DNA of 64,000 bases. Origin: Pseudopyrenochaeta lycopersici (lineage: Eukaryota > Ascomycota > Dothideomycetes > Pleosporales > Pseudopyrenochaetaceae). The translations under genes were made by a program, and so were the position numbers. Position 1 is the stretch's first letter; every line of letters starts with the position of its first letter. The notes beneath the pieces are model-generated. The model did no database searches. It saw only the letters and a list, made by a program, of their open reading frames with translations, and was not told the DNA's origin. This document shows positions 14,351-63,327 of the stretch, piece after piece. The stretch lies in contig NHZP01000057.1 in assembly GCA_003313425.1 (NCBI GenBank), forward strand, positions 186,001 to 250,000, read 5' to 3'.

Positions 14351-17126
14351 CAGACTTGTCGGCAATTCAATATTGATTGATAAGGGTGATATTGATATTG
14401 AATTGATATCCAGACCCAAGATTGATATTGAATTGATAATATTGCCAAGAATCACCCGATTGGGACTAGCATATAGAATCTATGGTGTATCAGACACTTT
14501 GGGCACCTATAGTCCGGAAAGCCCATTGTCATCGCTTTCTACTTCGGCTGTGATATTGCCAGGATCTTCTGCCGGTATGTAGAGTGTCTGGATAAGCCCG
14601 TTCTTATTCCAATTACCCAGAACCTCTGTCATCTCCACAATCCATGCTCCTAGCCTAGCTCTGTCCCATGAGATAGTTCTCCGTACGCCTGAGAAGACGC
14701 GCTCGGCTTCATCAGACATTGGAGGAATAGAAAGGATATCCATCGCCATTTGATGAAGCCGAGGGTATTCTAGTCGCTGCTCCTCTTTACACCACCACTC
14801 CAAAGGAGAGCAAGTGATCTTACAAGGCTTTGCGTTCACAAATTTCTCGAATTCATCCTCCTCTTCCTCCTCTTCCATAACGTCAAGCTCCGCCGCAAGC
14901 CTCTCAAATTTTGAGAGTTCTGGTTGTGAATTATCCGCCTCCTTCTGCGACTTTAGAAGAGGCAGATCCTTATAATTTGCCCAAATCTCTCTTGCGGTAG
15001 TAAGGGCCGGTTCTCTCCAGGAGGATACCCAATTGATATCAATATACTTGAGGCGGCGTCGGGGATGGAGGAGGAGGGCTGTGGTATAGGCAGGCGCTTC
15101 GTCAGAGGATTTGTAATACTTGTCAAGGACATACCACCCCATATTAATGGAGTTGACTATATGGGAGTTGTTTTTATATTGAATCTACTTAAGATTAGCA
15201 GTATAAATAAGTTTTTTATCAGCAACATACCTTTGCTTCCTCGTAGTGTTTAAAGAGGATATCCATTGTCCAGAGAGCTTGGTCAAGCGATGACCAGTTA
15301 GCTTCCTGTGTAAGTGTTGCTTGATTAAATGGCTGTAAGAATTCAAGAGTCATTGTAAGAGTCTCCCAATCTTCCGCAGAAAGAACAGCGCCACCAAGGG
15401 CTCTATGATGCTTTTGACAGAACTTATTCAAAGCATCCTGCTTCTCAACGGCCAATGCAATCAACTTGTACCAGGAGTTCCAGCGTGTTGCGTTATCGAT
15501 GCCCAGAAGCTTCCCAGCAAGTGCCTCCCACTCATCAGTCAATATAGTGGAGGAGCGAATATAGACAGCGATACCATGGAGGCTCCCAAGCGCTCCATTG
15601 GACTGCCACCTAGCCTCGTTAAGGAGTCGCATTCTTTTGCCTTTCTTGTCGCCTCTCTTCTCACGAAGCTGCTCTTGCAATGCTTCAACCACAGTGATAT
15701 CTGACTCCTCTTTTGCAGCCTCAATGGCAGCCTCAAGGGCTTCTACTGTAGTTGCAAAGAGGAAGGCATCAAGAGATAGATTGATTATATGACCGCTGCA
15801 TCGAATCCGCCTCTTTTTTGCATTGAATAACACCCCAATTTTTGTAAGAGCATTTGCAATAGCCCTACAACAAGTGTCGTTACTGGAAGCATTATCCCCA
15901 ATAATATAGCCTGTCTTCTCCGTAACCTCATAGGCTTGTATTGTCTCGAGAATATGCCTTGCCATCGTCTCGCCGCTGTGAGAGAAGCGACACTGTGGGA
16001 GGGAGAGGAGAGCTTTGCGGAGGGTGTAGTCGTGTCCAACGAATTGCGCGCAGATGCCAAGGAATGATTTCCGGTTTGCCGATGACCAGAGATCGATAGA
16101 GTAGTGGATTTGAGACTTTGCCCTGTGTAGGCGCTCCTTAATGGTAGCGTAGTGTGTTTTAAAGCTTCGCTCAATGTGGACAGGTATAGTAGTGTGTGAC
16201 TCGATAAGTAGGTTTTCGACCTCTGGATTAACTGCCATTAGGAGCGCTTGGTATTCTGGCCATTCAACACAGTTGAAAGGCAAGCGGCGGCGAGTAACAA
16301 GCTGGATTTGTGCCTCGTAGAAGGCGTCTTTGTTAAGCGCCTTCGTAAGAACCTCCTCCACATCCTCGGTATTCTTCTCTACCTGCTTCTTTACCGACAT
16401 TTGAAGGGCTGCTTGGAGAGAGACTTGCCGTACTTTCTTTCCCTTCGGCTCTTCAACATCAACGTAGACTTGATGTAGATTCGCCATATGAGTCCTAGCG
16501 TTAGTGGTAATAGCAGTAGCCCAGGGTTTCCCATAGCCGTCACAGTCCTTACAATACATCAGTGATTGCCCTGACTTATCGCGCATTGCCTCATCATTCT
16601 CTGGCTTCCGAAAGTGTGTCCATATATCAGCAGCACGCCTCTTTCTTGACTTTACGTCCTCACGGCTACGGTCAGGTCGATGTGGTTTGTCATTGAGGAA
16701 GCGCCATGGGCTAGGAGAGGCTCTGGAGGAAGGCGTAGTGGGTAGAGAGGGTGTGGATGAGGAGGAAGGAGGTCGGATAGGCCGACCTTGGGAGTTCTGG
16801 GAGGCCATAACGTTGTAGAATGGTTTATGGCGGTGGTTGTGGAGCATGCAGCAGAGAGATAAACCGGTAGATACCCTGGGATTTGCACGCAAAAGGTGCA
16901 AAAAAGGAAAACGCGAAAGGACGCGAAAGGGCGCGGAAGAACACCAAAAAAGGCGAAAAAAGGCGAAAAAAGCAAAAAGGTGGTGAGAAGTGGGTGTGCA
17001 CGTGCCCTTATCAATACTTATCAATATTGAATTGATAACGATATCCCATATTGATATTGCCTACTTGGATGAATATTGATATTGATTGATAAGAACATTG
17101 ATAAGCACATATTGCCGACAAGTCTG
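14351..17126 (-). mobile_element. hAT DNA transposon hAT1, 2,776 bp
   Basis: The ends are CAGACTTGTCGGCAAT (14351-14366) and its exact reverse complement (17111-17126), followed inward by repeated ATTGATATTG motifs typical of subterminal transposase sites. It encodes one nearly intact transposase on the minus strand. The 8-bp flanks GCTCCTTG and CCACCATT do not match, so the expected target duplication is absent. The left flank is the truncated regulator, and the right flank starts inside a helicase gene. Confidence 0.88.
14507..16808 (-). CDS. hAT transposase with BED-type zinc finger (hAT1)
   Basis: I take the start at MASQNSQGRP (16808). In-frame codons continue upstream to 17024 but look non-coding. 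A BED-like finger follows (YCKDC then HMANLH). Next comes the RNase H-fold core with SQIHYSIDLWSS and YIIGDNASSNDTCCRAI, the GHIINLSLD motif and the NNATRWNSWY-like motif (here DNATRWNSWYKL). A second exon (15142-14507) carries PLEWWCKEEQ and MSDEAERVFSGVRRTISWDR, the dimerisation domain. The exons are joined over an intron at about 15143-15220. The ATAG acceptor is clear, the donor is ambiguous (GTATGT or GTTGCT), and only the latter keeps frame. A one-base indel is the alternative. The protein would excise and reinsert the element. Apart from this junction, I see no inactivating change. Confidence 0.85.
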
Positions 17127-18439
17127 CCACCATTGAGACTCGCATCCCAAAGATTATCATCTTCCTAGCAGAGATTGCCCACTGCGTGGATCTTCGAGAC
17201 AGGATCATCCAATGGCTCCAACAGCGGCTGCAGCGAAGACTCGATAAGAGGATTATCAAGACGTACCACGGGGATTTGACGAAGGTTTCCCGACAGGATA
17301 TTGAGGAGAGGTTCTCCAGAGGTGAAATACGGATTCTCTGTGCCACCATCGCGTACGCTATAGGGGTTAATCCGGCCGGTGTCCAGTACGTCATCCAACG
17401 GGGCCTATGTGGCACAGATGAGGCCCTACAGAAACTTGGACGAGCAAACCGGCAGACGATTCAAGGACGCGCTATTTTCTTCTGGATTCCAGACGTTTGG
17501 GTACATGGTGAGCGTCAGGCTGGGTCGCGTCGACGTCTGAATTACCCGGTTTCATCAATCCGCACTGCAGCATCTATGGTAGATGAGGCACGACGTCAAG
17601 CATACTTGTCTGTATATGGCTCCGATGGCTCTGGCACTGATGCGTCAACTTGCTCGTCCGCTTCCACGCAGTCTGTTCAGCCAGGCCAGCCCACCTCGCA
17701 AAAGAAGCGAAAACGTTGTGGTCCGCAGCTCCCAGCAGCACGACGTCGATATGAACAACTCGCTGACGAAGAATATTTCGTATACAATCCTCCCGAAGGT
17801 TCATGTCATTGGAGAGAGACTATGAAAATCTACGAGAACGACGGCAATGTGCCAAACCCTTGCAATAACTGTTCAATATGTGCACCGTGTCCTATTACAC
17901 TAGAAGGGGTCCAGCCTTCAGAGCGATTAGAAAACACCAACATATCTGCAGCCATTCTACAGGGATTAAAGGATCTAGCTATTGAGTTTGGAAACGAAAT
18001 TACCTGCCCTATCCTACAAGCTGCCCGTCCAGAACCTGTGGAGCGAGTTTTACCCCTGGCCTGGCGGAAGAAATTTAGCAGTTCGTATCTCCAGGTCGCT
18101 AGCGGCGACCGTATGGGGTGGTGCTGGGATAGCCTATATGGTGAACGTATAACCGCATATATATGCCAGTTTGCTGCATTACCTACTCCTATGGATAGTA
18201 ATATGGTAGAACCCCTATCATCATCGATCCCGCTAGCATCGCAGGACGCGACCAGTTCTAGTACACCTCGGCCAGTAGTCCTCCAGGAGATTACCCGTAT
18301 GAATTCCGGTCGCAAGGATACCCGCAAGACTAGTCGTGGCACAACATCACTGTATAATGAGAAGGGCAAGTCTCGTTACTACAGGAAACATAGGAAGGGG
18401 AAGGAGAACAAGAGTGATGTAGAAATGGAAGATGGATAA
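17127..18439 (+). pseudogene. RecQ-like helicase, C-terminal half only
   Basis: The frame is open from the hAT1 end to the stop at 18437-18439. The first visible part is RIPKIIIFLAEI, then YHGDLTK, motif V (RILCATIAYAIGVNPAGV) and motif VI (EALQKLGRANRQ). A Cys-rich block with PCNNCSICAPC resembles the RecQ zinc-binding region. The tail is basic (KKRKR near the middle, KSRYYRKHRKGKENKS at the end). The ATP-binding motifs I-III should lie upstream and are cut off at 17126, so it cannot be an active ATPase as it stands. Motif VI has GRANR in place of the usual GRAGR. It converges with the DUF6589-type gene, with 229 bp between the stops. RecQ-like helicases occur both as repair enzymes and as passengers of fungal mobile DNA; the second fits here. 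Confidence 0.75.
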
Positions 18440-18668
18440 GTAATGATGCCCTTCTACCAATCGTCACAGAGACAACTAAATGTGGTCCCACCCAGGTCCC
18501 GATCCTAAGTAGGTGAAGACGAGTCCAATAAAGGGGGCGCATAGACGTTCAGCACAATGGTCACCACCCTCCATGGCTTCAACCTCATCTTAAATGCCAA
18601 CCTGCAGGCTCGGCGGGCTCACCCTCTAGCCTTGCCGTTTGTAAAAACTGACGGAGGCTTCGACGTCT

Positions 18669-21353
18669 CTACAGGCCCTCCTCAATATCATCGAGTAGCT
18701 CCTCAGAGGGCTGGGGCAGCTCGTTCAGGGCCTCTACTAGAGCACTATCCATAGTAGTTTCATCAGAGCTTAGACCAATTGAAGCCTCTACTCCATCCTC
18801 GCCCCATATAGGGATATCCTCATTAGATAGTACATCATCCGCGCCGTACATAAATCTTGTGTTAAATGCACTCATAGTTCTCTCAATTGTGATAGCGCCG
18901 TCTACGGTAGTATCCCTGGACCATTTAAGCTTCTGTGAGGCTGGATCGGATCGCCTGCTGTCTGGTACTATTGAGCGCTGCGATTGAACTGCGAGATAGT
19001 TGATAACCCTCCCCCGGTTCTTCCGTTCGTGCTTCCCAAGTGAATTTCTCCCCCAGATACACTGCAATTGCGCCCTGAGTGGTCGGAGAAAGATAGCATC
19101 AAGAGCGCCATATTCTGAAGCAGTCCGTATCGTAGTCGAGGACGTCCTTCTACTCGACCATATATCTTTGATAGAACGGTTGAGAAATTCGTTAGCCAAA
19201 TCAATTGCATAGAATCCGTCTGGTCGCCCAGTAGGATTCACGAGCAGAGTTCCAGCGATAGCCCGTCGATGCTCCTCTGATTTGACGTGGGTTGTGTCAA
19301 TTAGCTTCTTGATGTACAAGGCAATCCGCGTATATGTAGGCTTTTTTGAGCCCTCAAACATATATATCAAAAAGTCGATAACATGACGTATGATCCCGAC
19401 GTCTCCATGTTTGATGCCGTGTGTGAGTGCTTCGTAATACACAGCGTCACGTACGAATAGGAGATTTTCTCGCCTTTCAAGATCAAAAAGCCCTTCCATA
19501 TGGTAGCCTGTTATCGAATTGACCGCCTTATTTACCAATTTCTTGAGTTCACGGGCTGTTAGGCTGATAACGGCCTCCTCGAGTTCGGTGGCTGTCGCGT
19601 TGGCGCCCAGTGACTCACTGCGTGAAAAGGGGCTACCTTCAATAAGATGTCGATAAAACTCGGCAACCATCCTCCCTTGGAGAGCGTCTAACACGAACGT
19701 GCGCGTGTGGGCGAAGACCATACTCGTAGGACTAACAAATCGGCGGGCCATTTTGCCAGAGAGATACCGCAGTGCAGCGTGGTTGCAGCGCTCACCACCA
19801 GTAGGCTCGTCACCCCAATGATTCTTGACAATCGTAGCAATTAGATGCATCTGGACGTGAAAGAGTCCAGGTATAGGCACGATGTGCTCTAGGCGACCAT
19901 ATGCGTCGACGTTATCGGTAGCACCACGTATTGCACTCCACATTCGATTGACCGTTTTGGCGTCTCCACCCACCAGGAGAGCTGGATGTTGGTCGAAATA
20001 TTCAGGGGACAAGGCGAGCTGTTCACGAAATATGTTGCGTAGTACTTCAACATTACCAGACGTGGTGTCCTCACTAGTTTGGATGGGCATTAGCGGCACA
20101 GGAACGTGACGGGCTCCCTCTGGTATAGATATTCGGTCAACCACAGGATAGGCCGCATGAGCATGTATGGCCCGATGACTTGATTTGCACCTGCGGATGT
20201 GTTCGGGATATACCTCCTCTAGAGCACGGTATAGCGCGGCTGTGATGCACTGTGCAATACACTGACTGCGGGCATCTGAGGACCGTATCATATCCTCCAT
20301 TGACATGGAGTAGGGTCTAAAGTCACTCTGCGTCAACCCGTTGATCGGGAGAATGATACCAGGGAGGAGAAGGGCCGTCGTGATAGAATGGAGTTGATTC
20401 CTAGAGACGTTGTCCAGTTCGCTTACGCCAGTCGTTAGTTCACAATTGTCGTATACGACTGCCCAAGGCCCATCAGCAATAAACTTGCGGGCCAAATTCC
20501 GGGCACTATTCTGGAGGCCACCAACGCTGCGGTAGATTGACTGCCATGACTCTGTCCATCCCATAGAGTTTGTTACGCTAAAGATCTGCTTGTTCGTACC
20601 TGCAGAAAAGAGCATTAGACCCATAATCGCTGGTAAGAAATTGCAGAGCCGCTGATGCCGGGTGAAGCAAATGATGGATAAGACTGATATAATACGGGAT
20701 CGAATATGACCAATGGGGGTTTTGCTGCTGTTTGAACATAGACGCTGCAGTAGATCCACGAGCCGTGGTGCCTCGCCGGTAACTTCGTCAAAAATGATCT
20801 CCTCGGAAACCATCTCAAATTGTGCACCAATGCCAGCCATAGCCTTTGCCTGATATTCACCAAATATAGAATAGGCCCTGAGGGCTTCAATCTCGTGTTC
20901 TAACCCAGCCATATACCTCTCTTCTATATCAGATGGCAGAGCGACGGTTGAGAGGTGGTTGGTGAAAGCGGGGGTCGACTCGAATGTCTTGATAAATCGC
21001 GCCCTATACGGAGCTCTTTCTTTTGTTCGGCTAACAAGTTCCAGAAAATCAGATAAAGCACCACGATGAGCAACACCACTCCTCTTATAGTTTATACTCT
21101 CTATTGCTCTAATATATCGTCCTAGCCTATCCTCCTCCTCGTCAGTTAACGACGGGGCATCTCGTATATGTATAGAGGGACTCGAGGTGTGATTTTTCGA
21201 CCCAGCTGGGCGTCCAGGTCTACGACGAGGGGGTCTTGGGGACGTATCAGGACGGATTGATGATGGCTGAGATGATGACGCAGGCGTCGAAGTTGCAGGC
21301 AACGGCGGGGTAGGACACTCTCCTATGCCTATCAGATTGGCTGGAACATACAT
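18669..21353 (-). CDS. DUF6589-type large protein, candidate transposase
   Basis: This is a single open frame of 894 residues without stop or frameshift. I recognise it as DUF6589-like from HVPVPLMPIQTSEDTTSGN and LVGGDAKTVNRMW followed by HIVPIPGLFHVQMHL; that is recall, not a search result. Residues 43-54 (RRRPGRPAGSKN) form an AT-hook-like DNA-binding motif after a Ser/Pro/Thr-rich start. Spaced acidic residues stand at D302 (VVYDNCE), D464 (VGGDAKT), H499 (GLFHVQM) and E722 (ANEFLNRSIKD). This arrangement would suit an RNase H-fold DDE core with a long insert. The tail is acidic. The start is uncertain because the Met lies at the beginning of a frame that could be preceded by a short exon near 21370-21450. 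The neighbouring convergent gene is a RecQ-like helicase. Confidence 0.7.
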   Translation of the reverse strand: MYVPANLIGIGECPTPPLPATSTPASSSQPSSIRPDTSPRPPRRRPGRPAGSKNHTSSPSIHIRDAPSLTDEEEDRLGRYIRAIESINYKRSGVAHRGALSDFLELVSRTKERAPYRARFIKTFESTPAFTNHLSTVALPSDIEERYMAGLEHEIEALRAYSIFGEYQAKAMAGIGAQFEMVSEEIIFDEVTGEAPRLVDLLQRLCSNSSKTPIGHIRSRIISVLSIICFTRHQRLCNFLPAIMGLMLFSAGTNKQIFSVTNSMGWTESWQSIYRSVGGLQNSARNLARKFIADGPWAVVYDNCELTTGVSELDNVSRNQLHSITTALLLPGIILPINGLTQSDFRPYSMSMEDMIRSSDARSQCIAQCITAALYRALEEVYPEHIRRCKSSHRAIHAHAAYPVVDRISIPEGARHVPVPLMPIQTSEDTTSGNVEVLRNIFREQLALSPEYFDQHPALLVGGDAKTVNRMWSAIRGATDNVDAYGRLEHIVPIPGLFHVQMHLIATIVKNHWGDEPTGGERCNHAALRYLSGKMARRFVSPTSMVFAHTRTFVLDALQGRMVAEFYRHLIEGSPFSRSESLGANATATELEEAVISLTARELKKLVNKAVNSITGYHMEGLFDLERRENLLFVRDAVYYEALTHGIKHGDVGIIRHVIDFLIYMFEGSKKPTYTRIALYIKKLIDTTHVKSEEHRRAIAGTLLVNPTGRPDGFYAIDLANEFLNRSIKDIWSSRRTSSTTIRTASEYGALDAIFLRPLRAQLQCIWGRNSLGKHERKNRGRVINYLAVQSQRSIVPDSRRSDPASQKLKWSRDTTVDGAITIERTMSAFNTRFMYGADDVLSNEDIPIWGEDGVEASIGLSSDETTMDSALVEALNELPQPSEELLDDIEEGL

Positions 21354-21359
21354 AGGAGC

Positions 21360-21753
21360 CTATTACCCGCTAGACGAGCAGCAGCAACTGCACTGAGTGC
21401 GTGGAGCCGAGTTGGGAAGGCCGTGGGTGTATCATGCTGGGCATCCATCGGACCAGGTCGTCCCGAACCCAATTTCCAGCAACCCAAGTTCCTCGCCCGG
21501 CACACGCCAAAAAATCGTAATAATAAGAATGGATGTACTTTCGATACAGTATAGCTGATTGTAGCTATCAGATATAAAACTTTACTAACTAGTTGTAGAG
21601 TAATACGCATAAACAGTACTAATTTTAGGGTAAAACGGTCGTCCCGAGACTAAAATATATTAAACCGGGTACCAGACGTTCCCTGAGGGGTCCCGTCTTG
21701 GCGCGTGCGCAGGGCTATCCCCAAATAGGTAACGTCGCGTGAAAACCAGACTA
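21360..21753. other. Upstream region of the DUF6589-type gene
   Basis: This holds the likely promoter and perhaps a short first exon on the minus strand (MDAQHDTPTAFPTRL, near 21445). A short AT-rich tract (21510-21660) follows. I found no terminal inverted repeat here. The stretch ends abruptly at the truncated 5' LTR of copia-1. Confidence 0.4.
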
Positions 21754-21919
21754 CATCTCAGGGAACCTGAGGAAGAACTGCATTAGTAATCTTGCCATAT
21801 AATCTCAGACGTGCGGGGTCAGGTTTATAAGACCAAGACACAATACACACACAATACAACTTTTCTGCTCATTATCAATTATTTTGACTTCTCATCATTT
21901 TAGCACGTCCAGTGCGACA
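21754..21919 (+). repeat. 5' LTR of copia-1, 5'-truncated
   Basis: It begins at CATCTCAGGGAACCTGAGG, inside the family consensus, and runs to the terminal GCGACA. The absent tip carries the TGTCGCA end needed by integrase. Confidence 0.9.
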
Positions 21920-21940: not shown

Positions 21941-22167
21941 TCCTCTGCTACACAGCATCGTCAGCGACAAAATTCGTCGCAGTTACACATTTCTCACGAA
22001 AATGATTCTCCTCACAGAGCCGACACGACTTTCGGCCGATTGTGCGGAAAAGAGGGGTTGCGAAAAAGCAATACAACAACCCCGCAACGCATTCAAAAAT
22101 GAAGACTCAGAAATTGGCTGAGTTCACACCTTTTCAATAAAAGAAGACGTCACAACAATTTTTCAAG

Positions 22168-23385
22168 ATGTCGATCAAGGATCACAATCTTCCAATGCTT
22201 AACTTACGCAACGACTGGACTGACTGGATCAACTCGATCGAGGACCTTGCTGTACGAAACGATGTCTGGAACTACTGCGACCCTGAAGGCATCGAAAACT
22301 TGGTCTTCACTGTCACCAAACCACCAGACTCAGCAAGCAAAGACACGATCCAGAAGTACCACAGCCTTCAAGCTATCTATGATAGTGAGAGGAAGAAGTA
22401 TGATAAGGTCTCCGAGCGCATTGACATCACCGTCTGCCAGGAGTTCAAACAACACTACCTCGGCATCCACACTGTCCGAGGCAAACTCATTGCGCTAGCT
22501 GAGAGCATTCAGCCGACCGCAAAAGACCAGAAACAGAACGTCAGAGCCGAGTTTGAGAAGCTTAAGAAGGGTCATGGCAACACCAGTCTCGACAAGTGGC
22601 TCAGTCGATGGCCTGCTCTCGTTAACAACGCGAAGCGGTATAAGATCGAGAATCTGAGCGAGTCGCAGATATGCGATGCCTTCATTGAAGCCTCTCGCGA
22701 CATCAATCCTCCGTTCTATAACTACATGAAGTCTAAAGAAGCACAAGTCGAAAGTGACACATCACTTATCAAAGAGACCGCAGAGGCAATGGCAATAATC
22801 TCTAGGGCATTCATCACTGCTCTCAATGAGATCAATCCAAACCATTCCAGCACCGGATCTGTGGCAATTGACAACCTAAGTGATTCTAGCTCAGATGAGA
22901 CCGGCGACGATGCCGATATCACAATCGTACAGAAGGCACAGAACAAAATCAACAAGACCCTCCGGTCCTACCGTAGGCTAAATCCGACTCTTTCCGACAA
23001 GAGAATCACGATAAGCTTCTGTATTAAGCAGTTTAGGACCATGGCACCGCCAAGCGAAAAGACTGCGAGAGGGCGAGCTGCACACGCCACCCTTCAAGGC
23101 AGAAAGCACGGTCATGATTTAGACTCTTCGGACGATGGAGATTTACAGCCGAGGCGGAAAAGGCAAAGGGACGACTCTACTCCAACAGTAACCAATTCAC
23201 CTACAACTCTTCGCGACTGCGTTTGTGGGTTACCCCATAAGTACGCAGACTGTCGATATCTCAATCCATTATGTGCACCATCGGCCTGGACACCAATTGT
23301 TCAAGTCCAGTCTAAAGTCATCACGGCAATTAAAAGGAAGCAAGCGTCTCCGAACGAAGATCGAGAGGAACTTCCTCAGAAATAG
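22168..23385 (+). CDS. copia-1 Gag polyprotein
   Basis: An intact 405-residue frame begins MSIKDHNLPMLNLRND and carries a central capsid-like helical region (residues 1-220, UBN2-type). An acidic linker follows (SDSSSDETGDDADI). Near the end a short zinc knuckle reads CVCGLPHKYADC, the C-x-C-x3-H-x4-C pattern common in fungal copia elements. It would form the particle shell that packages element RNA. The frame ends with TAG at 23383-23385, and pol lies in another frame, so Pol expression would need frameshifting or a separate start. Confidence 0.85.
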   Translation: MSIKDHNLPMLNLRNDWTDWINSIEDLAVRNDVWNYCDPEGIENLVFTVTKPPDSASKDTIQKYHSLQAIYDSERKKYDKVSERIDITVCQEFKQHYLGIHTVRGKLIALAESIQPTAKDQKQNVRAEFEKLKKGHGNTSLDKWLSRWPALVNNAKRYKIENLSESQICDAFIEASRDINPPFYNYMKSKEAQVESDTSLIKETAEAMAIISRAFITALNEINPNHSSTGSVAIDNLSDSSSDETGDDADITIVQKAQNKINKTLRSYRRLNPTLSDKRITISFCIKQFRTMAPPSEKTARGRAAHATLQGRKHGHDLDSSDDGDLQPRRKRQRDDSTPTVTNSPTTLRDCVCGLPHKYADCRYLNPLCAPSAWTPIVQVQSKVITAIKRKQASPNEDREELPQK

Positions 23386-23387
23386 GA

Positions 23388-26300
23388 TTGCCTTACCAAA
23401 GTTCTGGCCAGCTGATACCTCTAAAAATCAACCTGAAAAAGGAAACAGGGGAGAACGTCGCCTTAACCTCAACCTCTGCAATGACCGGGTCAAGGGCATC
23501 GTTTGCCACATCAAGGTTTGCGTACAGCACAGCCGCAAAAGACGAGTATGACGACTATTTCGGACTCGATAATTGTGCGGATACACATGTCTGTAATGAC
23601 CTATCTCGTTTCGCCGCGTATAAACCATTGCACGACGAAACCATACGGTTCGGTGACACAGACACGCATATTGAAGGGATAGGAAATGTCACAGTCCACG
23701 TCGACACTCCGTCAGGCCCTAGTCTCATTCAACTCGAGAATGTGGCCTATGTACCCGGTTTCCATTGGAATCTCATCAACATGGATTCTCTTGAGAAGCA
23801 AGGGCTTTTCTTTAACACGAGAACATGCTGGATGGAGTACTCAGACGGGTCGAATGCATTCAAAGCAACGAAACACGGCGCATTTCGAGTGGTTGAACCA
23901 CATATCGAACATGCCGTCTTCAAAGCAAAGACTCATGCAGAAGCAGCAAAAGCTTTCGCCACAGCAAGGAGGTCACGGACGCCTCAGATTGCTGTAGCAT
24001 CCATGGATGTCTGGCATGCGAGATTGGGACATATCAGGAAGGAGGCTCTCAAGCACGTGCCGCAAGCAGTCGAAGGAGTTGCACTTGGCACTCGCGACTT
24101 TCAACGGACCTCAGATCTCTGTCCTGAATGCCAACTCGGACAAGCTCATCAACAGATTTCACGAATTCCGATATGGAGAGGAACTTATCCATTCGAGAAA
24201 GTTCATCTGGACCTCATTCACATGGAGGAAGCATTCAATCTTGATGCATGGGTTGTCCACTTCTACTGTGACCACTCGGCATACCATATTTCCTTTAACA
24301 TCCCAAACAAAACTCAAGAAGAACTAGTTTCTGTGACGCAGGAGTTCCTTGCGCTCACAAATGACAGCTGGGGCTTCACCACACGATACATCCAATCAGA
24401 TGGTGAGAGAGGCCTAGGCCAAACGTGGAAGGACCTCATAATTATGAAGGGCATCACGTTCAACCCATCTCCACCAGACACTCCAGATCAGAACGGTCCT
24501 GCTGAACGTTCTGGGGGGGGGGGGGTGATCATGGCCATCGCGCGCAAACTTCGTATACAGAGCAGACTACCTCACAAACTCTGGCCGTACCTCGTTGCGC
24601 ACGCTACTCGACTTCTCAATCGCATTCCAGTACAGAGGAAACGATGGCAAACGCCTTTTGAGATGGTCCATGGCCGTAAACCAAATCTTGCGTATCTCAA
24701 AATCATCGGATCTCTAGCGTACGTCCTTATCAAGAATAAAAGGGACCGTCCTGCGAGAGCCAAGCTACAAGAGAAAGCCATCAAAGGCTGGCTTGTCGGG
24801 CTAGACGCAACCAATGTCTACAAAGTCTGGATCCCACACTTAGATCGTGTTATTAGATCTCGGGATGTGCAAATAGATGAGAAAGTTATGTACGATCCAC
24901 AGCTCATCACAAGCCTCCCCGAGTCCGTACACACGTTCTCAATCATCATAAACGAGATTGATTTGGATGAGACTGATGCAGAACCACTTCCAGTCATGCA
25001 AGACGCAACAGTTTCCAATCCTGATTTAGTCCAATATGAAGTACCGTCATGGTTCCTTCCTATAACACAATCTCAATCCACACAAACAATTTCCAACGGG
25101 ACACAAAGTCACGCGGATAGGCTACAACCACAGCTATACCCAACTCCAATGTCCCTTGAATCGCGTCAACCAAGCACAACAACACAAGCCTTTCCAAGAA
25201 CAGGGGCAGGCTATCATACAGTAAACTCAGTTCAGTCACACCTCACTGCACGTCAGGTGCAGAAGCAGGCACGTCGACAAGCCCATGCATTACGACTTGA
25301 ACGTGCCAAGCTGGGACAACAAATAGCCCACACCTTCGCATCGGCACGGTCAATCCGTACTCACCGAAGGGACTTGATGCCACCGCCAGACTTTTGGCAT
25401 CAGCTAAAGCGGCATCCAGAGAAAGAAGGATTCAGACGTGCTGCAGACGCTGAGATCAAGTCACTCGAAGAGAAGAAAACTTTTGAACTAGTCGATTACC
25501 CAGAGCACAAACAAGTGCTGCCACTCAAATGGGTTTTCACTTACAAACTCAATGACGCCGGGTACCTTATTCGTCATAAAGCACGAATATGTGTGAGAGG
25601 CGATCTCCAACACAACATCACCGATGACATCTATGCAGCTACCGGCGCATATCGTAGTTTCCGCATCCTTATGGCACTCGTCTGTGCGTTTGGGCTTCTC
25701 TGTCATCAAATTGACTTCAAGAACGCCTTCGTCAACGCAGATATGGACGACAAGATCTATACTACTTGTCCACCAGGGTATGGAACGCCAGGAAAGGTTT
25801 GGAAACTGCTCAAAGCGCTGTACGGGCTGCGTAAATCACCAAAGCTATGGTTCGATGAACTTGTATCATTCCTCAAGGGTCTGGGATTCAATCATTGCCC
25901 AGATGAGCCATGCATACTTATCAACAACGAAACAGGACTCATCTTGTTTCTCTATGTGGATGATCTTCTTGTTATTGCACGACAAGAATGTATTCACCAT
26001 ATTAACCAATTCAAGACAGCAGTAAACAAAAAGTACGGGATCAAGGATTTGAGCGAAGCAATCTCGTTCCTCAATATCAGGATTCTGAGAGATACCAGAG
26101 CTAAAAAGCTTTGGATTTGTCAAGATGGATACATCGACAAAATCTGTACTAAATTTGGAACAGATCAGTCATTGAGAATAGCTACTACGCCTCTCATCTC
26201 GTCATATCGTCCTCAACCTTTCGAAGGTCAGGCTACGATCCAACAGATCACAGAGATGCAGGAAAAGGTAGGCTCAATACTGTATGCAGCAGTAGTATCA

Positions 26301-27029
26301 AGACCGGATATCTCCTTTGCAGCCAGCCAGTTGAGTCAGTTCGCTACAAACCCTTCACGAGAGCATTTGCGGTGCGCAAATCGAGTACTCTCATATCTCC
26401 AGGCTACAAAGTACTATGCCATCGAGTTCTCGGGCTCTGTGAACCACTCCACAGAAGTAGAGACAGGCGATGATGAAGTGCTACAGTTGTCAAGCGACGC
26501 ATCGTTCGCGGATGATCCAGAGACTCGAAAATCCACCCAAGGCTATCTTATGAAGTTGTTTAGTGGACCTATTATGTGGCAGTCGTCCAAACAAAAGACT
26601 GTAACCACCTCAACAACTGAAGCAGAGCTCTTATCGCTATCACACACGGCGAGGGAGACAATAGGTCTATACAGACTGTTTGAGCAGATAGAGTTCAACC
26701 CTGAAAACCAACCTCGCATTCTCTGTGACAATCAACAAACGGTAGGCCTGATCCAGAAAGAGAGACCACAGCTGACATCAAAACTTAAACACGTCGATAT
26801 CCACAACTTCTGGCTCAGATAGATTCACAGAGACGGCAAAGTTGCAGTCCAGTGGGTTCCAACCACGGATATGCCTTCGGATGGCTTCACAAAACCCCTC
26901 TCAACAGAGAAACATATTCACTTTGTACGCCAATTAGGCCTGGTTGATATCTCATCGCGGATTGACCCAGGATATGCATCAGAAGAGGATAGTCCCCAAG
27001 CTATTCAGATCTCGTCTGAAACAGAGTGA
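23388..27029 (+). pseudogene. copia-1 Pol polyprotein with one nonsense codon
   Basis: The frame opens at 23388 with a TTG codon, so the true start is unknown. The order of domains is as follows. Protease-like motif at residues 61-71 (DNCADTHVCND, where most relatives have DSGA). Integrase zinc motif (HARLGHIRKEALKH and CPECQLGQ) and catalytic core (HLDLIHM, QSDGERG, NGPAERSG). Reverse transcriptase with LYVDDLLVIA. RNase H with SSDASFADD and STTEAELL. A TAG at 26820-26822 interrupts the end of RNase H, but the same frame then continues with HRDGKVAVQWVP and SDGFTKPLS to a TGA at 27027-27029. The stop replaces what was most likely a Gln codon. A run of ten G bases (24511-24520) adds glycines without shifting the frame. 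Confidence 0.85.
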
Positions 27030-27043
27030 AATCTGGGGGGGTG

Positions 27044-27226
27044 TGTCGCAGGCCAAGGCATCATCTCAGGGAACCTGAGGAAGAACTGCATTAGTAATCT
27101 TGCCATATAATCTCAGACGTGCGGGGTCAGGTTTATAAGACCAAGACACAATACATACACAATACAACTTTTCTGCTCATTATCAATTATTTGACTTCTC
27201 ATCATTTTAGCACGTCCAGTGCGACA
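27044..27226 (+). repeat. 3' LTR of copia-1
   Basis: A complete 183-bp LTR from TGTCGCAGG to GCGACA, preceded by a G-rich polypurine tract. It contains the short hairpin CTCAGGGAACCTGAG near its 5' end. Confidence 0.93.
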
Positions 27227-31325: not shown

Positions 31326-32650
31326 ATGTCTCACGCAAATATTACCGGCGTACGCGACGCTACGATCATCCTCACCGACTATACGAACTACACGCCATGG
31401 TTACTACAACTCAAAGCAAAAGCAGAGTTCCACGACGTATGGGCAATCGCAGACCCTGATGGAACTAGAGAACCTTTGCTGGAACCGATCCCCCCAGTCC
31501 TACCACGATTAGCTGACTACGTACCGGCTGTAGTCCAACGACCGGCACCCAGCGCGTCGTCAAACTCTCGGGGTAACCGGGTTGGATCATCAAGCCAGCC
31601 AACAAGATCAAACCCGTCCCGAACCGATGCAACTCCAGCTACACCGACGAAACTATCGGACTTATCACCTGAAAGCCAGGAAACATACAAGGCCGATCGA
31701 GACGACTACAAGGTACAGCTCGAAGCCTACAAGATCGACGAGAAGAAATACGACAGAGAACGGGCTAACTATCGGTTACTTGCAACGCACATTCAGAGCA
31801 CAGTATCAGCGCACATTCAGCGCAACTGCTGCCTCCCTGGTACCACGATTCGCCGATGGATTATTGATATCCGAAGGACAGTAGGAATCAACCACTCGAA
31901 GAACGCCAACGAGCACGAACAAGATATCACAATGCATTGAAGCCAATGAGGACCCCAGTAAACTGGGATATCTGGCTTGCCGAATACGATCGAGCAGCAA
32001 CTGACGCTGAGACCGAAGGAGTCGCGGAGGTACAACATAATGACGACATTATAGAAGATTTCTTGTCGGCAGTGGAAAAGGTAGCACCTATGTGGGTGAC
32101 TGCCTTCTCTAGCCAGGTGGCCAGAGGTGACCCAGACCATGACAGAAAAGAAATGATGAAACTCTTCCGGGAGCATATGAGCCGCTCTTACCCACAAAAG
32201 GGCAAGCAGAAGAGCGCTTTCGCTGCTGGAGACGCTGCATACCCCGCTGGCGGTGAATCCGACCAGGGCGCACAGAGGGACGCCTCCGGTGTAGCTGAAG
32301 AAGCATCATCAGCCTTACGGGGCAAGAACCGTGGTAGAACCCGGGGAAAACGCAAATTTGGGCAAAGCAGCACCAGATCCAAGCATTCCTCTCTGGAGGA
32401 TACGGCGGCAGTCGAAGGCACAACATGCCATGCTTGTGAACAGCGCCACAATCTTTTTGATTGTTTCTATCTAAACGAAGATAAGGCACCTACGTGGTTT
32501 ACACCAGATTCAAGAATAGCCAAACTCGTTGAGTACAAAAGAAAGTATGACCCAGAGCTAATCAAATTATTAGACTCAAAGCGCCAACGATCAAAGACGC
32601 CGCTGATTAAGAATTCGCAAACACCAACACCCGAAGTCTTAAAAGATTGA
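31326..32650 (+). pseudogene. copia-2 Gag with a frameshift
   Basis: The first frame (31326-31940) opens MSHANITGVRDATIILTDYT and holds the capsid-like N-terminus. The second (31937-32650, in a different frame) holds the rest with a basic linker (RGRTRGKRKFGQ) and a zinc knuckle CHACEQRHNLFDC. Reading the two together needs one base shift near 31880-31940. The second frame ends with TGA at 32648-32650 and is in register with pol, so pol could be reached by stop readthrough. That arrangement differs from copia-1. Confidence 0.8.
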
Positions 32651-32698
32651 CTAGAAGGAAGAGTTATATCAACAATCGAAGCCGCGTATACCGCGTCA

Positions 32699-35600
32699 GT
32701 GTTCTCAATGAAGAACCAACCGTATCCGCTAAAGAATGCATTCATCCTCGATTCGGGCGCGACAATACACATCTGCAACATGGCGCAACGCCTAACTCAC
32801 CTCCGTCCACCTATCCCCGGTGACTGCGTGTGGACAGGCGACGCACGAATATGGATTAAAGGATATGGCACCGTACATATCAAAGTCAAGTCACCATATG
32901 GCACAGAGATACTCCGATTAGAGAACGTTGCCTTCTGCCCGGAGATTCTATGCAACCTCGTCTCATTTAGACTACTCAGACGGCAAGGAATTTGGTGGGA
33001 TAATAAGAATGAACCTACGTCGTTAAAGAGATGGGACAACTCCATCATCGCATACCTGACGGAAGCACACAACCAATGGGTACTCGAGCAATCAGATGCA
33101 AACGACAGTGCCTTTCACACCCGATTCAACTCTCGAACCAAGCGGTCGCCACAAAGAGCAAGTGCGATACTATGGCACAAGCGCCTAGGGCATCCAGGGC
33201 CCGCAGTGATCGAACACCTCGTCCAACAATCTGAGGGGGTGCGCATCAAAGGCGTCACTACAGTCGAGTGCGACGCATGTGGGAGAGCCAAATCAAAGCG
33301 CAGGATCCGCAGAGAACCTCGACTGAGCGAAGAAGGGCCGGGAGAACGAATCGCGATCGACTTTCACGACTACGAAGTCGGGAGCTACTCAAAGGAAAAG
33401 AGCCAAATGCTTATCACTGACCGATTCTCGGCATATAACTGGGATTTCTACTTTACCGACAACAGACCAGCACGATCTATTATTCGATTACTGGATAATT
33501 TCACTTGCTTCCTATATACGCAGTTCAATATTACTGTAAAAGTTATCGAGACGGACAACGAGATAGTGACCGTCAAGCCAGAAGTTAAGAGATGGTGCAC
33601 GTCCAAAGGCATAAAGGTCGAGCCTTCTGCTCCTGATACCCAATCACAGAATGGCGGGGGAGAACGCTCAGGGGGTGTGATAAAAGAAAAGGCACGCACG
33701 ATACGACTGGATGCTAATCTTCCCTGGGAACTATGGCCAGAAATCACAAGAGCGGCAGTATACCTGTACAATAGAACGCCGAACTACTCAAACCGCTGGA
33801 AAAGCCCATACGAGGTATTCTTCACAAGGGTCGCTGCTATGAATGGTATCGTCACTGGACCACGGAAACCAAACCAAGCTCATCTTAAAGCATATGGCTG
33901 CAAGGCATTTGCAATGACCGACGATACCCACCGAGGAAAGTCGCGACTGCAACGCTTGGATCCAAAGGCCTGGATTGGCTATCTTATTGGCTATCAATCT
34001 ACAAACATCTACCGAGTTTGGATCCCGTCACTAGCTAAAGTCATCAGCACAAGAGACGTAGTCTTCGACGAAAGCGTAGTGTTCAGCGGCAAAACGGAAG
34101 ACCTCATGGACAACCTTATGCACAATACCCTGCAGGAGATTGCAATGTGGGTGAAAACGATTGAACTGCCTACACCACCGCGACAAGGACAGCCTGAGAC
34201 TGGGTCGTTCTACGAAGACGATACAATGATGGGAGAGAGCTCAAGCCCACAAGGTCAAAAGTCAAGAGGTTGCCGAAATAGAAAAGTTATGGACTCATAC
34301 CCAACGCCGCCAGACACTCCGCCACCCGTAGCTCTCCTTAGCCAGGCGTGGACCGACGAACTTGAAGCTAATAGCACGACGACACATGGCTCGTCAAAGA
34401 CAGAACCATGGGCAGCAGCATTTATGGCCGGCACTCAAGCAGGGCACGTAGGGGAACATGAAGGCAAGCCCATTGACAAGGCACAGCTGAAGAGAATGCT
34501 GGCAAAGGGGGTGAAGCCTCACCGAAACCAATTGCCACCTCTGCCGGCGACTTACTCAAAGCTTGAAGATCATCCTCTGTACGAAATGTTCAAGGAAGCA
34601 GAACGAGAACACCTAAGGAGCCATGAACAAATGAAGTCCTGGGCTGAAGTGCCAATCACTCCCATCAAACGGAAAGGTCACCAAATATTAGACTGCATGT
34701 GGGTGTATACCTACAAATTGGACAAACACCATCGCCTTATTAAATGCAAAGCACGACTGGTCGTTCGTGGCGATCAGCAACGAAACATCACGTCACAAGA
34801 CACATACGCAGCCACTTTAGCCAGCAGGTCTTTTCGAATGCTCATGGCAATCGCTGCCAAGTTCAACCTTGAACTTAAACAGTACGACGTTACTAACGCA
34901 TTCGTGCATGCAACCATAGATAGAGAAATCTACATGAGAATGCCACGAGGATACCAGAAGCCCGGAACGATCCTTAAGCTTGAAAAGGCACTTTACGGTC
35001 TTCGAATTTCACCGCTCCTATGGCAGAAAGAATTCGTCTCAACCCTCACCAAACTAGGCTTCAAACAAGTGCCACATGAGGCCTGCTGCATGATCAAGGA
35101 TGGCATTATCATCTTCTTTTACGTCGATGACATTATCTTAGCCTATCACCAGAAGAAGGAGGTAGAAGCTCAACAAACTATCAAGGCTCTTCAAGAAAGA
35201 TACACCTTCACAGGTGGAGAAGACCTGCAATGGTTCCTCGGCGTTGAAGTTATCAGAGACCGAGAACAACGATTAATTCAACTCTCCCAGTTAGCCTATG
35301 CCGACAAAATTAGCAGACTTGCAGATAGGAAAGATGTCCGACATGATACCCCAATGGCAAGCGTTGAACTCCAGCCACGCGAGGGATTAGCATCACCATC
35401 AGAAGTCAACAAATACCAGCGTAAGATTGGTTCCTTACTATTTGCCGCCGTTACAACACGACCAGATATAGCCTTCGCAACATCGCGCCTTGCACGCTTC
35501 CTCGTCAACCCTGGCACGGAGCATCAGGAGGCTGCTGACAGAGTCCTGCTCTACCTTGCAGCGACAAAATCAAGAGCACTCCAATTGGGAGGAGGCGACA

Positions 35601-36148
35601 AGCTTGAAGTAGCCAGCGACGCATCATTTGGCGATAATACAGTCGATAGAAAGAGTTCGCAAGGTTATGTGATTAAGCTATTCGGTGGTCTTGTTACCTG
35701 GAGAGCAAGTAAACAGGACACGGTCACTACCTCAACGACTGAAGCAGAACTGCTCGCACTCTCCCAAGTAGCAAAGGAAGCTATCTTTACTTCGCGACTT
35801 CTCAAGGAGCTCCAGGTATCATTGCCGGAGTCGACTATTACAATTCAATGCGACAATACACAGACAATTCGACTTGTTACGGAAGAGATTGCAAAACTTC
35901 AAACCAAACTTCGACATGTAGACATCCACAACCACTGGCTACGACAAGAAGTATTGCTGGGACGAATTCAAGTCAAATACGTAGAGTCCTCGCAAATGAT
36001 AGCAGATGGACTTACCAAAGCGCTGCCCTCAAACAAATGGGAGAACTTTCTTAATCAATTAGGACTGGTAAACAAGAAACCGGCCTTAGCAAAAGAGTTA
36101 AAACTCGAAGACATACAGACTCAAATAGAGGATCTGACAATCGCATAA
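32699..36148 (+). CDS. copia-2 Pol polyprotein, intact
   Basis: An uninterrupted frame of 1,149 residues. Protease: ILDSGATIHICN near residue 20, with the normal DSG. Integrase: HKRLGHPG and CDACGRAK zinc motif, then IAIDFHDYEV, ETDNEIV and NGGGERSGG, giving the D, D and E of the core. Reverse transcriptase: VTNAFVHATI and FFYVDDIILAY. RNase H: ASDASFGDN, STTEAELLAL, CDNTQTIRLV and MIADGLTKAL. The protein would copy and integrate the element. It is in frame with the second gag segment, separated by TGA (32648). Confidence 0.93.
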   Translation: MFSMKNQPYPLKNAFILDSGATIHICNMAQRLTHLRPPIPGDCVWTGDARIWIKGYGTVHIKVKSPYGTEILRLENVAFCPEILCNLVSFRLLRRQGIWWDNKNEPTSLKRWDNSIIAYLTEAHNQWVLEQSDANDSAFHTRFNSRTKRSPQRASAILWHKRLGHPGPAVIEHLVQQSEGVRIKGVTTVECDACGRAKSKRRIRREPRLSEEGPGERIAIDFHDYEVGSYSKEKSQMLITDRFSAYNWDFYFTDNRPARSIIRLLDNFTCFLYTQFNITVKVIETDNEIVTVKPEVKRWCTSKGIKVEPSAPDTQSQNGGGERSGGVIKEKARTIRLDANLPWELWPEITRAAVYLYNRTPNYSNRWKSPYEVFFTRVAAMNGIVTGPRKPNQAHLKAYGCKAFAMTDDTHRGKSRLQRLDPKAWIGYLIGYQSTNIYRVWIPSLAKVISTRDVVFDESVVFSGKTEDLMDNLMHNTLQEIAMWVKTIELPTPPRQGQPETGSFYEDDTMMGESSSPQGQKSRGCRNRKVMDSYPTPPDTPPPVALLSQAWTDELEANSTTTHGSSKTEPWAAAFMAGTQAGHVGEHEGKPIDKAQLKRMLAKGVKPHRNQLPPLPATYSKLEDHPLYEMFKEAEREHLRSHEQMKSWAEVPITPIKRKGHQILDCMWVYTYKLDKHHRLIKCKARLVVRGDQQRNITSQDTYAATLASRSFRMLMAIAAKFNLELKQYDVTNAFVHATIDREIYMRMPRGYQKPGTILKLEKALYGLRISPLLWQKEFVSTLTKLGFKQVPHEACCMIKDGIIIFFYVDDIILAYHQKKEVEAQQTIKALQERYTFTGGEDLQWFLGVEVIRDREQRLIQLSQLAYADKISRLADRKDVRHDTPMASVELQPREGLASPSEVNKYQRKIGSLLFAAVTTRPDIAFATSRLARFLVNPGTEHQEAADRVLLYLAATKSRALQLGGGDKLEVASDASFGDNTVDRKSSQGYVIKLFGGLVTWRASKQDTVTTSTTEAELLALSQVAKEAIFTSRLLKELQVSLPESTITIQCDNTQTIRLVTEEIAKLQTKLRHVDIHNHWLRQEVLLGRIQVKYVESSQMIADGLTKALPSNKWENFLNQLGLVNKKPALAKELKLEDIQTQIEDLTIA

Positions 36149-36196
36149 GATATAGGTTTGTGGCAGCTTAGAAGATCACTCTAAGCTGAGGGGGTG

Positions 36197-36371
36197 TGTC
36201 AGATAAGAGGCATAAAAACTGAAGTATACGAATACTGCATCGTAGACGGTATCACCTATGTATCATCGATGTATCAGGTCTGTGTTTAAAAAGGAGAGAA
36301 AACAGAACCAACGAAAATACAATCAATTCTGATCCACGATGATGACCAAAAAGATTCATTAAATTCTGACA
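36197..36371 (+). repeat. 3' LTR of copia-2
   Basis: 175 bp, one base different from the 5' LTR. Confidence 0.95.
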
Positions 36372-44659: not shown

Positions 44660-44701
44660 CGCGTACAACGCGTCTCCAGCTTTCAACAAGCATAACAAGC
44701 T

Positions 44702-45701
44702 ATGCCTAAGTCCTCTTCTTCTGCAATTGAAGGTAGACTTTGTTTAGCAATTCAAGCATATAATTCAGGTCGAATCAAATCTTTACGCGCAGCATCTCGA
44801 TCGTACGATATTCCTTACACAACCCTCTACGACCGCCTTCATGGTACCCCTTCACGACGCGATTCTCGACCAGTAACGTGTAAACTTACTTCTACCGAAG
44901 AAGAAGTCCTCCTTCAACGTATTCTCGACCTTGACGCTCAAGGGTTTCCTCCCCGAATCTCCGTCGTGCGAGAAATTGCAGATATTATCCTCGCAACGCG
45001 CGGCGAGACACGACCCCAAACTGTCGGCCAGAACTGGGTTAGAAACTTTGTTAACCGGGACGATATGCTCCGTTCGAAGTACAATCGCAAGTACAACGAC
45101 GACGGAAAGCAATGCGAAGACCCTACTATTATACAAGGCTGGTTTAACCTCGTACGAAACATGGTTACCAAATATGGGATACTCAACGAGGATATGTACA
45201 ACTTTGATGAGACTGGCTTCCAGATGGGTGTTATTTCAACCTCAAGAGTAGTCACACGAGCGGTCCGAAAGGGTCGTCCGAGGACTACACAGCCAGGAAA
45301 TCGGGAATGGGTTACTGTTGTACATGGGGTTAATTCGCAAGGGTGGGAGATCCCCCCGCTTGTTATCCTGACGGCAAAGCTCTATCAGGCGACTTGGTGT
45401 ACTAATAACCCTGTGCCAGCTAATTGGGCAATCTCAGTTAGCGATAAGGGATGGACAGACGATGAGATTGGGTATGCATGGATTCAGCACTTCAATAAGC
45501 ACACCGAGTCTCGTACGAAGGGGAAATATCGCCTTCTTGTTCTTAATGGGCATGGGAGCCACCTTACTGGGCGATTTGAAGACTACTGTAAGCAGAACTG
45601 TACTATTGCGCTCTGTATGCCTGCACATTCCTCCCATCTACTCCAGCCACTTGATGTAGGCTGTTTTAGCCCACTTAAGGTCTTGTATGGTAAAGAGGTA
45701 G
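44702..45701 (+). pseudogene. pogo/Fot1-type transposase, 3' part lost
   Basis: The frame is open from MPKSSSSAIEGRLCLAIQ to VLYGKEV at 45700. Helix-turn-helix region: SLRAASRSYDIPYTTLYDRL. CENP-B-like second region: GQNWVRNFVNRDDMLRSKYN. Catalytic core: YNFDETGFQMG (first Asp), LLVLNGHGSHLTG, and SHLLQPLDVGCFSPL (third Asp). The second motif has Asn in place of the expected Asp of DGHGSH, which would abolish catalysis. The gene ends at 45701, where the hAT2 tip begins, and no C-terminal continuation is found on the other side of hAT2. Confidence 0.82.
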
Positions 45702-50483: not shown

Positions 50484-50771
50484 GGCGGTAGTGGTAAGGG
50501 TAGTACCTAACTTGTGTGTTTACTTGAGATGGACGCGTTCGGTATTCTGCCGCGTTTTCCAACCAATCGGAATCCTTAGCGGCTTACCGCCTATAGAGGC
50601 ACCCCTGTTAACACCAACAAGACGCCCAATAGTAGCACCTATATCACCCCTTCATTAATCGTATTAATCACTTTTAATCGTAGAGAGGTATGATTCACTG
50701 AATCATAATCAAACTCAGATTCAGATTCACATTTAATCTATTTAATCCGCCAGATTATATACAACCCTGGG
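50484..50771. other. Spacer upstream of the helicase pseudogene
   Basis: This region has AATC-rich words (GATTCACTGAATCATAATC and TTAATCGTATTAATCAC) near 50655-50750. No gene is visible. Confidence 0.4.
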
Positions 50772-61942: not shown

Positions 61943-62042
61943 GGGGGGGAGTGTCGCAGCCATTGTGCTGGACCTAGTTCTACTAGGTGCTGCATTGCTT
62001 GCTGCTGTTACAGGACTGCAAGAGCTAGCAGGATTGAAAGGA
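61613..62042 (-). mobile_element. Non-LTR retroposon copy 2 with 14-bp target duplication
   Basis: CAGGATTGAAAGGA stands at 61613-61626 and 62029-62042, enclosing 402 bp. The minus-strand 3' end is the CCAA-type tail (plus-strand TTGGTTGG run at 61627). About 265 bp next to it match copy 1 at roughly 90 percent. Its outer 5' part (61940-62028, minus strand beginning TGCTAGCTCTTGCAGTCC) is unrelated to copy 1. Because the target is a transposase frame, the duplication can be checked against the protein: removing one copy joins SPFNP to DVILSRF. Confidence 0.9.
61884..61939. repeat. GA and GT microsatellite inside retroposon copy 2
   Basis: A run of GA dinucleotides is followed by a run of GT dinucleotides, then a G run. 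It sits at the junction of the shared 3' part and the copy-specific 5' part. Confidence 0.9.
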
Positions 62043-63168: not shown

Positions 63169-63327
63169 GCTCTGCGTGCGTCAGGTAGGGACGTGCGCCA
63201 GGTGGTGCAACACGTTACGCCGACGCGCGCACGATACGCTGACAAGACTTTTGACGCGTTACTGTATCATAGTCCTGCCTCCCCACTGCCTTGACCTAGT
63301 CGTTCATCAACGCCGCTGCTTAGCCAA
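63169..63327. other. Pogo-C upstream and promoter of the terminal gene
   Basis: The stretch holds the 5' non-coding part of pogo-C and the space before the DUF6604-type start codon. No terminal repeat for pogo-C was identified. Confidence 0.4.

What the first reader, a model, noticed from the sequence alone, without database searches (positions are those of the whole stretch)
17127..21353. RecQ-like helicase paired with a DUF6589-type protein: a possible undescribed transposon class
Seen: a RecQ-like helicase C-terminal half and an intact 894-residue DUF6589-type frame converge with 229 bp between their stops, inside a block otherwise made of mobile DNA. The large protein has an AT-hook-like motif (residues 43-54) and spaced D302, D464, H499 and E722. 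Inference: this could be an RNase H-fold DDE transposase with a helicase partner, possibly a class of helicase-assisted transposon. The helicase N-terminus is cut off by hAT1, so this copy is not complete.
Basis: partly seen in the sequence, partly recalled or inferred. Interest (0 to 1): 0.82.

Follow-up and report, generated by a model that had tools for sequence, protein, structure and literature searches.

The report
Broken copy of a helicase-carrying transposon
A fungal jumping gene that carries its own DNA helicase, very probably of the already named AcademH kind, sits here as a broken copy inside the end of another mobile element, and its close relatives repeatedly landed at nearly the same spot in such ends.

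Summary
A RecQ-like helicase C-terminal part (17127-18439, +) and an intact 894-aa DUF6589 frame (18669-21353, -) converge with 229 bp between stops. The host genome (62.7 Mb; a fungus by inference) holds the pair many times: 16 of 22 helicase matches face a DUF6589 match, in subfamilies down to about 59% and 27% DUF6589 identity. Two-ended uninterrupted copies are 5.7-6.3 kb with imperfect terminal inverted repeats; 5 of 7 two-ended copies of the nearer subfamilies have 9-bp target duplications (3 perfect, 2 at 8/9), the distant one 8 bp. So it is a DNA transposon. The window copy ends at 21753; its left end and helicase residues 1-338 are lost at a rearranged junction with a hAT element. RecQ in Academ was in print by 2013 and AcademH (helicase, 9-10 bp duplications) since 2020, so 'undescribed class' is not supported; membership rests on gene content and duplication length, since transposase sequences could not be compared. 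The RNase H fold stayed untested (poor models), though D302, D464, H499 and E722 are invariant. Unexpected: 26 of 32 ends of the window's subfamily lie in Copia-type LTRs, 24-28 bp from the start where measurable, in both orientations.

The parts
17127..18439 (+). RecQ-like helicase, C-terminal remnant (residues 339-775 of the 775-aa frame on contig C80); the N-terminal part with GFGKT (motif I) and DELH (motif II) is lost
18440..18668 (.). 229-bp spacer between the two convergent stop codons; match-to-match spacing is 217-287 bp in 9 of the 11 near pairs (window included), the other two (C28, C56b) hold an insertion
18669..21353 (-). intact 894-aa DUF6589 protein, probable DDE transposase (AT-hook core GRP at residues 47-49; invariant D302, D464, H499, E722)
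21689..21753 (.). right terminal inverted repeat; the element ends at 21753 (read inwards it begins TAGTCTGGTTTTCACGCGACG)
   Evidence: repeat compared left to right in C25c and C72
21754..21762 (.). CATCTCAGG, right copy of the 9-bp target sequence, positions 19-27 of the Copia-type LTR; left copy lost
   Evidence: the same target, on the other strand, is a perfect 9-bp duplication in C72
21754..21919 (+). rest of the 5' LTR of the Copia-type element into which the transposon inserted; one mismatch and one 1-base gap to the 3' LTR
22141..26819 (+). Copia-type element internal frames (RVT_2 and other Pol domains in the second frame), host of the insertion
27044..27226 (+). 3' LTR of that Copia-type element, uninterrupted at the insertion point: an empty site
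14351..17126 (-). hAT element abutting the helicase remnant; no matching 8-bp duplication seen across the junction, so the left part of the transposon was probably lost by rearrangement

Best explanation
The pair is a left-truncated copy of an AcademH-type DNA transposon. Two-ended uninterrupted copies are about 5.7-6.3 kb: TIR - helicase gene -> <- DUF6589 gene - TIR. Most likely the DUF6589 protein is the DDE transposase that binds the TIRs (AT-hook and other N-terminal parts), cuts the element out and joins it to a target with a 9-bp stagger, while the RecQ-like helicase helps by unwinding ends, hairpins or the strand-transfer and repair intermediates. Shown: gene pairing, TIRs, 9-bp duplications, uninterrupted target LTRs, conserved acidic residues, loss of the left end. 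Inferred: catalysis by D302/D464/E722, the role of the helicase, and membership in Academ. This copy landed in the 5' LTR of a Copia-type element and is now immobile by itself: it lacks the left TIR and the helicase motor, but could still supply transposase to other copies if the gene is expressed.
For: Pairing in 16 of 22 helicase matches, in three divergent subfamilies. Ends located by comparing copies; TIR alignment score 60 in both C25c and C72 against random maxima of 12 and 9 in 500 draws each. Target duplications: C25c TGCGGCACC 9/9, C72 CCTGAGATG 9/9, C112 CGCCAGAGC 9/9, C79 and C64 8/9, C5 8/8; swapped left/right pairs gave at most 5/9 in 50 of 56, the other 6 all among C72, C79 and C64, which share one LTR target. 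Uninterrupted target LTRs: 40 nearly full matches (40 of 127 candidates were scored), of which C25 twice and apparently C115 are nested in element copies, leaving 37. Invariant D302, D464, H499 (13/13) and E722 (11/11). Papers: 'RecQ Helicase in Academ' (PMC3627910, passage); AcademH makes 9 or 10 bp duplications and encodes a helicase (PMC10045372, passage); AcademH reported in Basidiomycota, Ascomycota and Mucoromycota (PMC10799480, passage).
Against: No sequence comparison with a published Academ transposase was possible; the AcademH paper itself (Kojima 2020) is not held and no paper of the library contains 'DUF6589'. Structure models failed in the core and Foldseek with the second model found nothing at E<=0.001. 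C56b shows no duplication and C28 only an imperfect one (6 of 8). The 8 bp of the distant C5 copy is outside the published 9-10. The distant copies C43 and C55 begin inside the helicase and show no duplication. Other charged residues besides the proposed triad are invariant too. 9-bp duplications also occur in Mutator-type elements.
Confidence: 0.82

Rival explanations
1. It is a KolobokH element: a Kolobok-type DDE transposon with a RecQ helicase, known from fungi.
For: KolobokH encodes a RecQ helicase and has been found only in fungi; a red-algal Kolobok has the helicase on the complementary strand (PMC9587614, passages).
Against: Kolobok duplicates TTAA and has 5'-RR...YY-3' termini (PMC9587614, passage); here duplications are 9 bp, not TTAA, and the termini of the nearer subfamilies are 5'-TA...TA-3'.
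Confidence: 0.04
2. A previously unnamed superfamily: DUF6589 is a DDE transposase unrelated to Academ that independently acquired a RecQ helicase and a 9-bp stagger.
For: No PDB sequence match even at E<=10; no Pfam family other than DUF6589 for the window's protein at E<=1; no paper in the library mentions DUF6589.
Against: Helicase, duplication length and presence in fungi all coincide with published AcademH.
Confidence: 0.1
3. A Mutator-like element with cargo genes (9-bp duplications are usual for Mutator; recalled).
For: 9-bp duplications flank fungal elements assigned to MuDR (PMC3627910, passage); the genome has 107 MULE-domain matches.
Against: The DUF6589 protein has no MULE match at E<=1; in the uninterrupted copy C25c the helicase and DUF6589 are the only frames of 130 aa or more.
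Confidence: 0.04

Closest known systems
AcademH lineage of Academ DNA transposons (Kojima 2020, not read; known here from PMC10045372, PMC10799480 and its title)
   Same: DNA transposon with a helicase, 9-bp duplications (published 9 or 10), reported from fungi
   Different: Transposase sequence relation not tested; the distant subfamily shows 8 bp; the window's subfamily is concentrated at one position of Copia-type LTRs, which I did not see reported in the passages read
KolobokH (PMC9587614, passages)
   Same: RecQ helicase beside a DDE transposase in fungi
   Different: TTAA 4-bp duplications and RR/YY termini, neither found here
Mutator (MULE)
   Same: 9-bp duplications, imperfect TIRs (partly recalled)
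   Different: No MULE domain; a RecQ-like helicase and DUF6589 instead

Membership tests
AcademH | encodes a helicase (RecQ reported in Academ) | tested here: met
   literature statements
AcademH | 9 or 10 bp target site duplications | tested here: met
   9 bp in 5 of 7 two-ended A/B copies (3 at 9/9, 2 at 8/9); 1 imperfect, 1 absent; the one distant copy has 8 bp
AcademH | terminal inverted repeats | tested here: met
AcademH | Academ-type DDE transposase sequence | not testable with these tools
   I had no Academ reference sequence or profile; AcademH paper not held
AcademH | RNase H fold with DDE triad | tested here: inconclusive
   residues invariant but models poor
KolobokH | TTAA 4-bp duplication | tested here: not met
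KolobokH | termini 5'-RR...YY-3' | tested here: not met
Mutator | MULE transposase domain (PF10551) | tested here: not met
   no match at E<=1
hAT | hAT dimerisation domain and 8-bp duplication | tested here: not met
   the hAT in the window is a separate neighbour

The most novel reading that the evidence does not exclude
The window's subfamily is a site-directed transposon that parasitises another transposon: it inserts, in either orientation, with its 9-bp target lying about 16-28 bp inside the LTRs of Copia-type elements, recognising something at that position (a bound factor, a DNA structure or the LTR end itself) and not a fixed sequence, because three LTR variants with different letters at the site are hit; the helicase may help open that site.
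Probability: 0.5. Interest if true: 0.55.

Novelty: new member of a known kind. Interest (0 to 1): 0.38.

Why it matters
It ties Pfam's 'family of unknown function' DUF6589 to a complete transposon anatomy, so DUF6589 can probably be annotated as a transposase, and it gives clean occupied and empty sites for testing what a transposon-borne RecQ helicase does. The LTR-position preference, if it is targeting, would be a DNA transposon that uses retrotransposon ends as landing sites.

Tried and rejected
Undescribed class: dropped as best reading because helicase-bearing Academ elements are in print. KolobokH: duplications and termini disagree. Mutator: no MULE domain. A simple nested hAT insertion as cause of the truncation: no matching 8-bp duplication seen and no N-terminal part in the window. 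LTR position caused by one event copied along: rejected as sole cause, because both orientations, three LTR variants and offsets of 24-28 bp occur; but C70a, C70b and C80 share long flanks, C70/C105/C160 and C36a/C36b share outer flanks, and four elements are counted by both ends, so the rows are not all independent.

Led nowhere: AlphaFold2 on 894 residues and on residues 285-777 (7 sequences each; mean pLDDT 36.8 and 48.7); Foldseek on the second model only (no match at E<=0.001); relatives in viral and prokaryote contigs (0 confirmed of 19 and of 20 pattern matches); PDB sequence search with the DUF6589 profile (0 matches at E<=10); KDZ family search in the genome (0, with the controls silent too); a literature search on insertion into LTRs (3 listings, none on this by title and abstract start). 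The protein database gave six DUF6589 relatives in three searches, without genomic context, so the pairing in other genomes was not tested. Passages of PMC8290104, PMC12210899 and PMC9970103 only cite or use AcademH/Academ and added nothing.

Full report
What is in the window. A helicase fragment (17127-18439, +) and an intact DUF6589 frame of 894 aa (18669-21353, -) converge with 229 bp between their stops. Pfam gives DUF6589 (E 4.3e-56) and Helicase_C (E 5e-9). A full helicase frame elsewhere in the genome (contig C80) is 775 aa from its first Met, has GFGKT, DELH and QKLGRANR, and its best solved relatives are WRN and other RecQ-family helicases. The window holds residues 339-775 only.

The pair is a repeated unit. 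It has 46 matches to the DUF6589 protein, in 30 clusters by a rule of my own, and 22 matches to the helicase fragment. 16 of these 22 converge with a DUF6589 match within 4.6 kb. Of the other six, three are fragments (C20 twice, C86) and three are 27-32% identical helicases (C5:1020305, C8, C2) that I take, untested, to be other genes. Paired copies fall into the window's subfamily A (82% or more in the near-full DUF6589 matches), subfamily B (59% in the full copy C25c; 50-66% in pieces of C28 and C56b) and a distant subfamily (27%). Not all are independent: C70a and C70b are one inverted duplication (99.9% over 11.9 kb) and C80 shares about 9.9 kb with C70a. This same-genome test was the only one possible; no other fungal genome is held.

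Ends and target duplications. Comparing copies gave ends that begin TAGTCT on both sides in subfamilies A and B, and TTACCTCAG in the distant C5 copy. The first 65 bp of the two ends align with score 60 in C25c and in C72, against random maxima of 12 and 9 in 500 draws each. Eight two-ended elements were scored: C25c, C72 and C112 have perfect 9-bp duplications, C79 and C64 match at 8 of 9, C28 only imperfectly (6 of 8), C56b not at all, and the distant C5 copy has 8 of 8 bp. Swapping left and right flanks between elements gave 5 or fewer of 9 in 50 of 56 pairs; the six higher ones are all among C72, C79 and C64, which share one LTR target. Lengths are 5,747 (C25c), 5,858 (C72), 5,833 (C79) and 6,250 bp (C5); C28, C56b and C64 are longer (9,095, 8,726 and 11,095 bp), in C28 and C56b because of insertions, in C64 presumably so; C112 is 1,967 bp, holds DUF6589 pieces and no helicase match, and has a perfect duplication. 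The distant copies C43 and C55 share 5.4 kb but begin inside the helicase and show no duplication.

The window copy. Its right end is 21753, followed by CATCTCAGGGAACC. That is position 19 onward of a TG...CA LTR; 21754-21919 matches the 3' LTR at 27044-27226 with one mismatch and one 1-base gap, and the frames between are Copia-type (RVT_2). So the element landed in the 5' LTR of this Copia-type element. The LTR start runs through the insertion point without interruption at 5969, 27044, 30249 (minus strand) and 40930 in the window. In the genome, 40 nearly full matches were found (40 of 127 candidates were scored); C25 twice and, by the same pattern of matches, C115 are LTRs nested inside element copies, so 37 remain as empty sites. 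The left TIR and helicase residues 1-338 are missing. The neighbour is a hAT element (14351-17126), but I see no common 8 bp at its two flanks, so a rearrangement rather than a plain insertion probably removed the left part.

LTR preference. I examined all 24 left-end and 17 right-end pattern matches plus the two interrupted right ends of C25a and C25b: 43 ends, of which 26 lie in LTRs of this kind. All 26 belong to the window's subfamily and its near variants: 26 of 32 such ends against 0 of 11 subfamily-B ends (the split is mine, from the end sequences). Six A-like ends are outside LTRs (C20, C72x, C31, and C57x/C105x/C113, which share one flank). In 18 of 18 rows where the LTR start is visible, the element begins 24-28 bp inside it. 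Both orientations occur; by eye the outer flanks show about 14 different places; three LTR variants with different letters at the site are hit. Only the first variant is shown here to be an LTR of a Copia-type element; the other two I call LTRs because they share the start (TGTCGCAGGCC or nearly so). The C43 copy of the distant subfamily has as right flank the reverse complement of the left flank of C5, so there too one repeat was hit in both orientations. I read this as target preference; purging of insertions elsewhere by selection would not explain the exact position.

Transposase evidence. D302, D464 and H499 are invariant in 13 of 13 DUF6589 proteins (window, five same-genome copies, one distant partial frame, six database proteins), E722 in 11 of 11 that reach it; other charged residues (for example D624, E626, D651, D718) are invariant as well, so the triad is plausible, not proven. 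Structure prediction failed in the core: seven sequences gave mean pLDDT 36.8 for the whole and 48.7 for residues 285-777, where the confident parts are helices; Foldseek with the second model found nothing at E<=0.001.

Comparison with the known. PMC3627910 (2013; passages seen) lists 'RecQ Helicase in Academ'. PMC10045372 (passages seen) says AcademH makes 9 or 10 bp duplications and AcademX 3 or 4, and links this to helicase and nuclease. PMC10799480 (passages seen) reports AcademH in Basidiomycota, Ascomycota and Mucoromycota. The AcademH paper (Kojima 2020) is not held; what it describes is taken from its title and from citing papers. KolobokH also has RecQ in fungi, but Kolobok duplicates TTAA and has RR/YY termini (PMC9587614, passages seen), which is not met. 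Mutator shares the 9-bp duplication but not the domain. A search for 'DUF6589' in the library gave 0 papers, so I saw no printed link between DUF6589 and Academ; the original Academ papers could not be read.

Verdict. A real, helicase-carrying DNA transposon, most likely AcademH, in a broken copy. The likely new points are the DUF6589 assignment and the position preference in LTRs.

Noticed in passing
window 21754-21762; ends in L013-L059: 26 of 32 ends of the window's subfamily sit in Copia-type LTRs, 24-28 bp from the LTR start in the 18 rows where this can be measured, in both orientations.
   Followed up: partly
G000 C70:172000-224533 and C25:822000-860257: Two large inverted duplications carry the element: C70a/C70b 99.9% over 11.9 kb and C25a/C25b 99.9% over 14.1 kb.
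   Followed up: no
G000 C25:831419-831603 (L021) and C25:851794-851978 (L023): Reciprocal nesting: a solo LTR sits inside the element's right TIR with a CCAGA 5-bp duplication, while the element's own outer flank is again the same LTR.
   Followed up: partly
window 50709-51812 (+): A separate DEAD-box helicase N-terminal half (Pfam DEAD E 1.7e-15); the tblastn gave no match between it and this element's helicase.
   Followed up: no
window 44696-45784 (+), 59656-60456 (-), 62011-63180 (-): Pogo/Tc1-like transposase frames (DDE_1 with HTH_Tnp_Tc5).
   Followed up: no
window 32651-36145 (+): A second Copia-type polyprotein (RVT_2); the stretch 31629-36371 also occurs at C25 with 98.4% identity.
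   Followed up: no
window 55200-57785 (-): An 862-aa frame with DUF6604 (E 2.6e-15).
   Followed up: no
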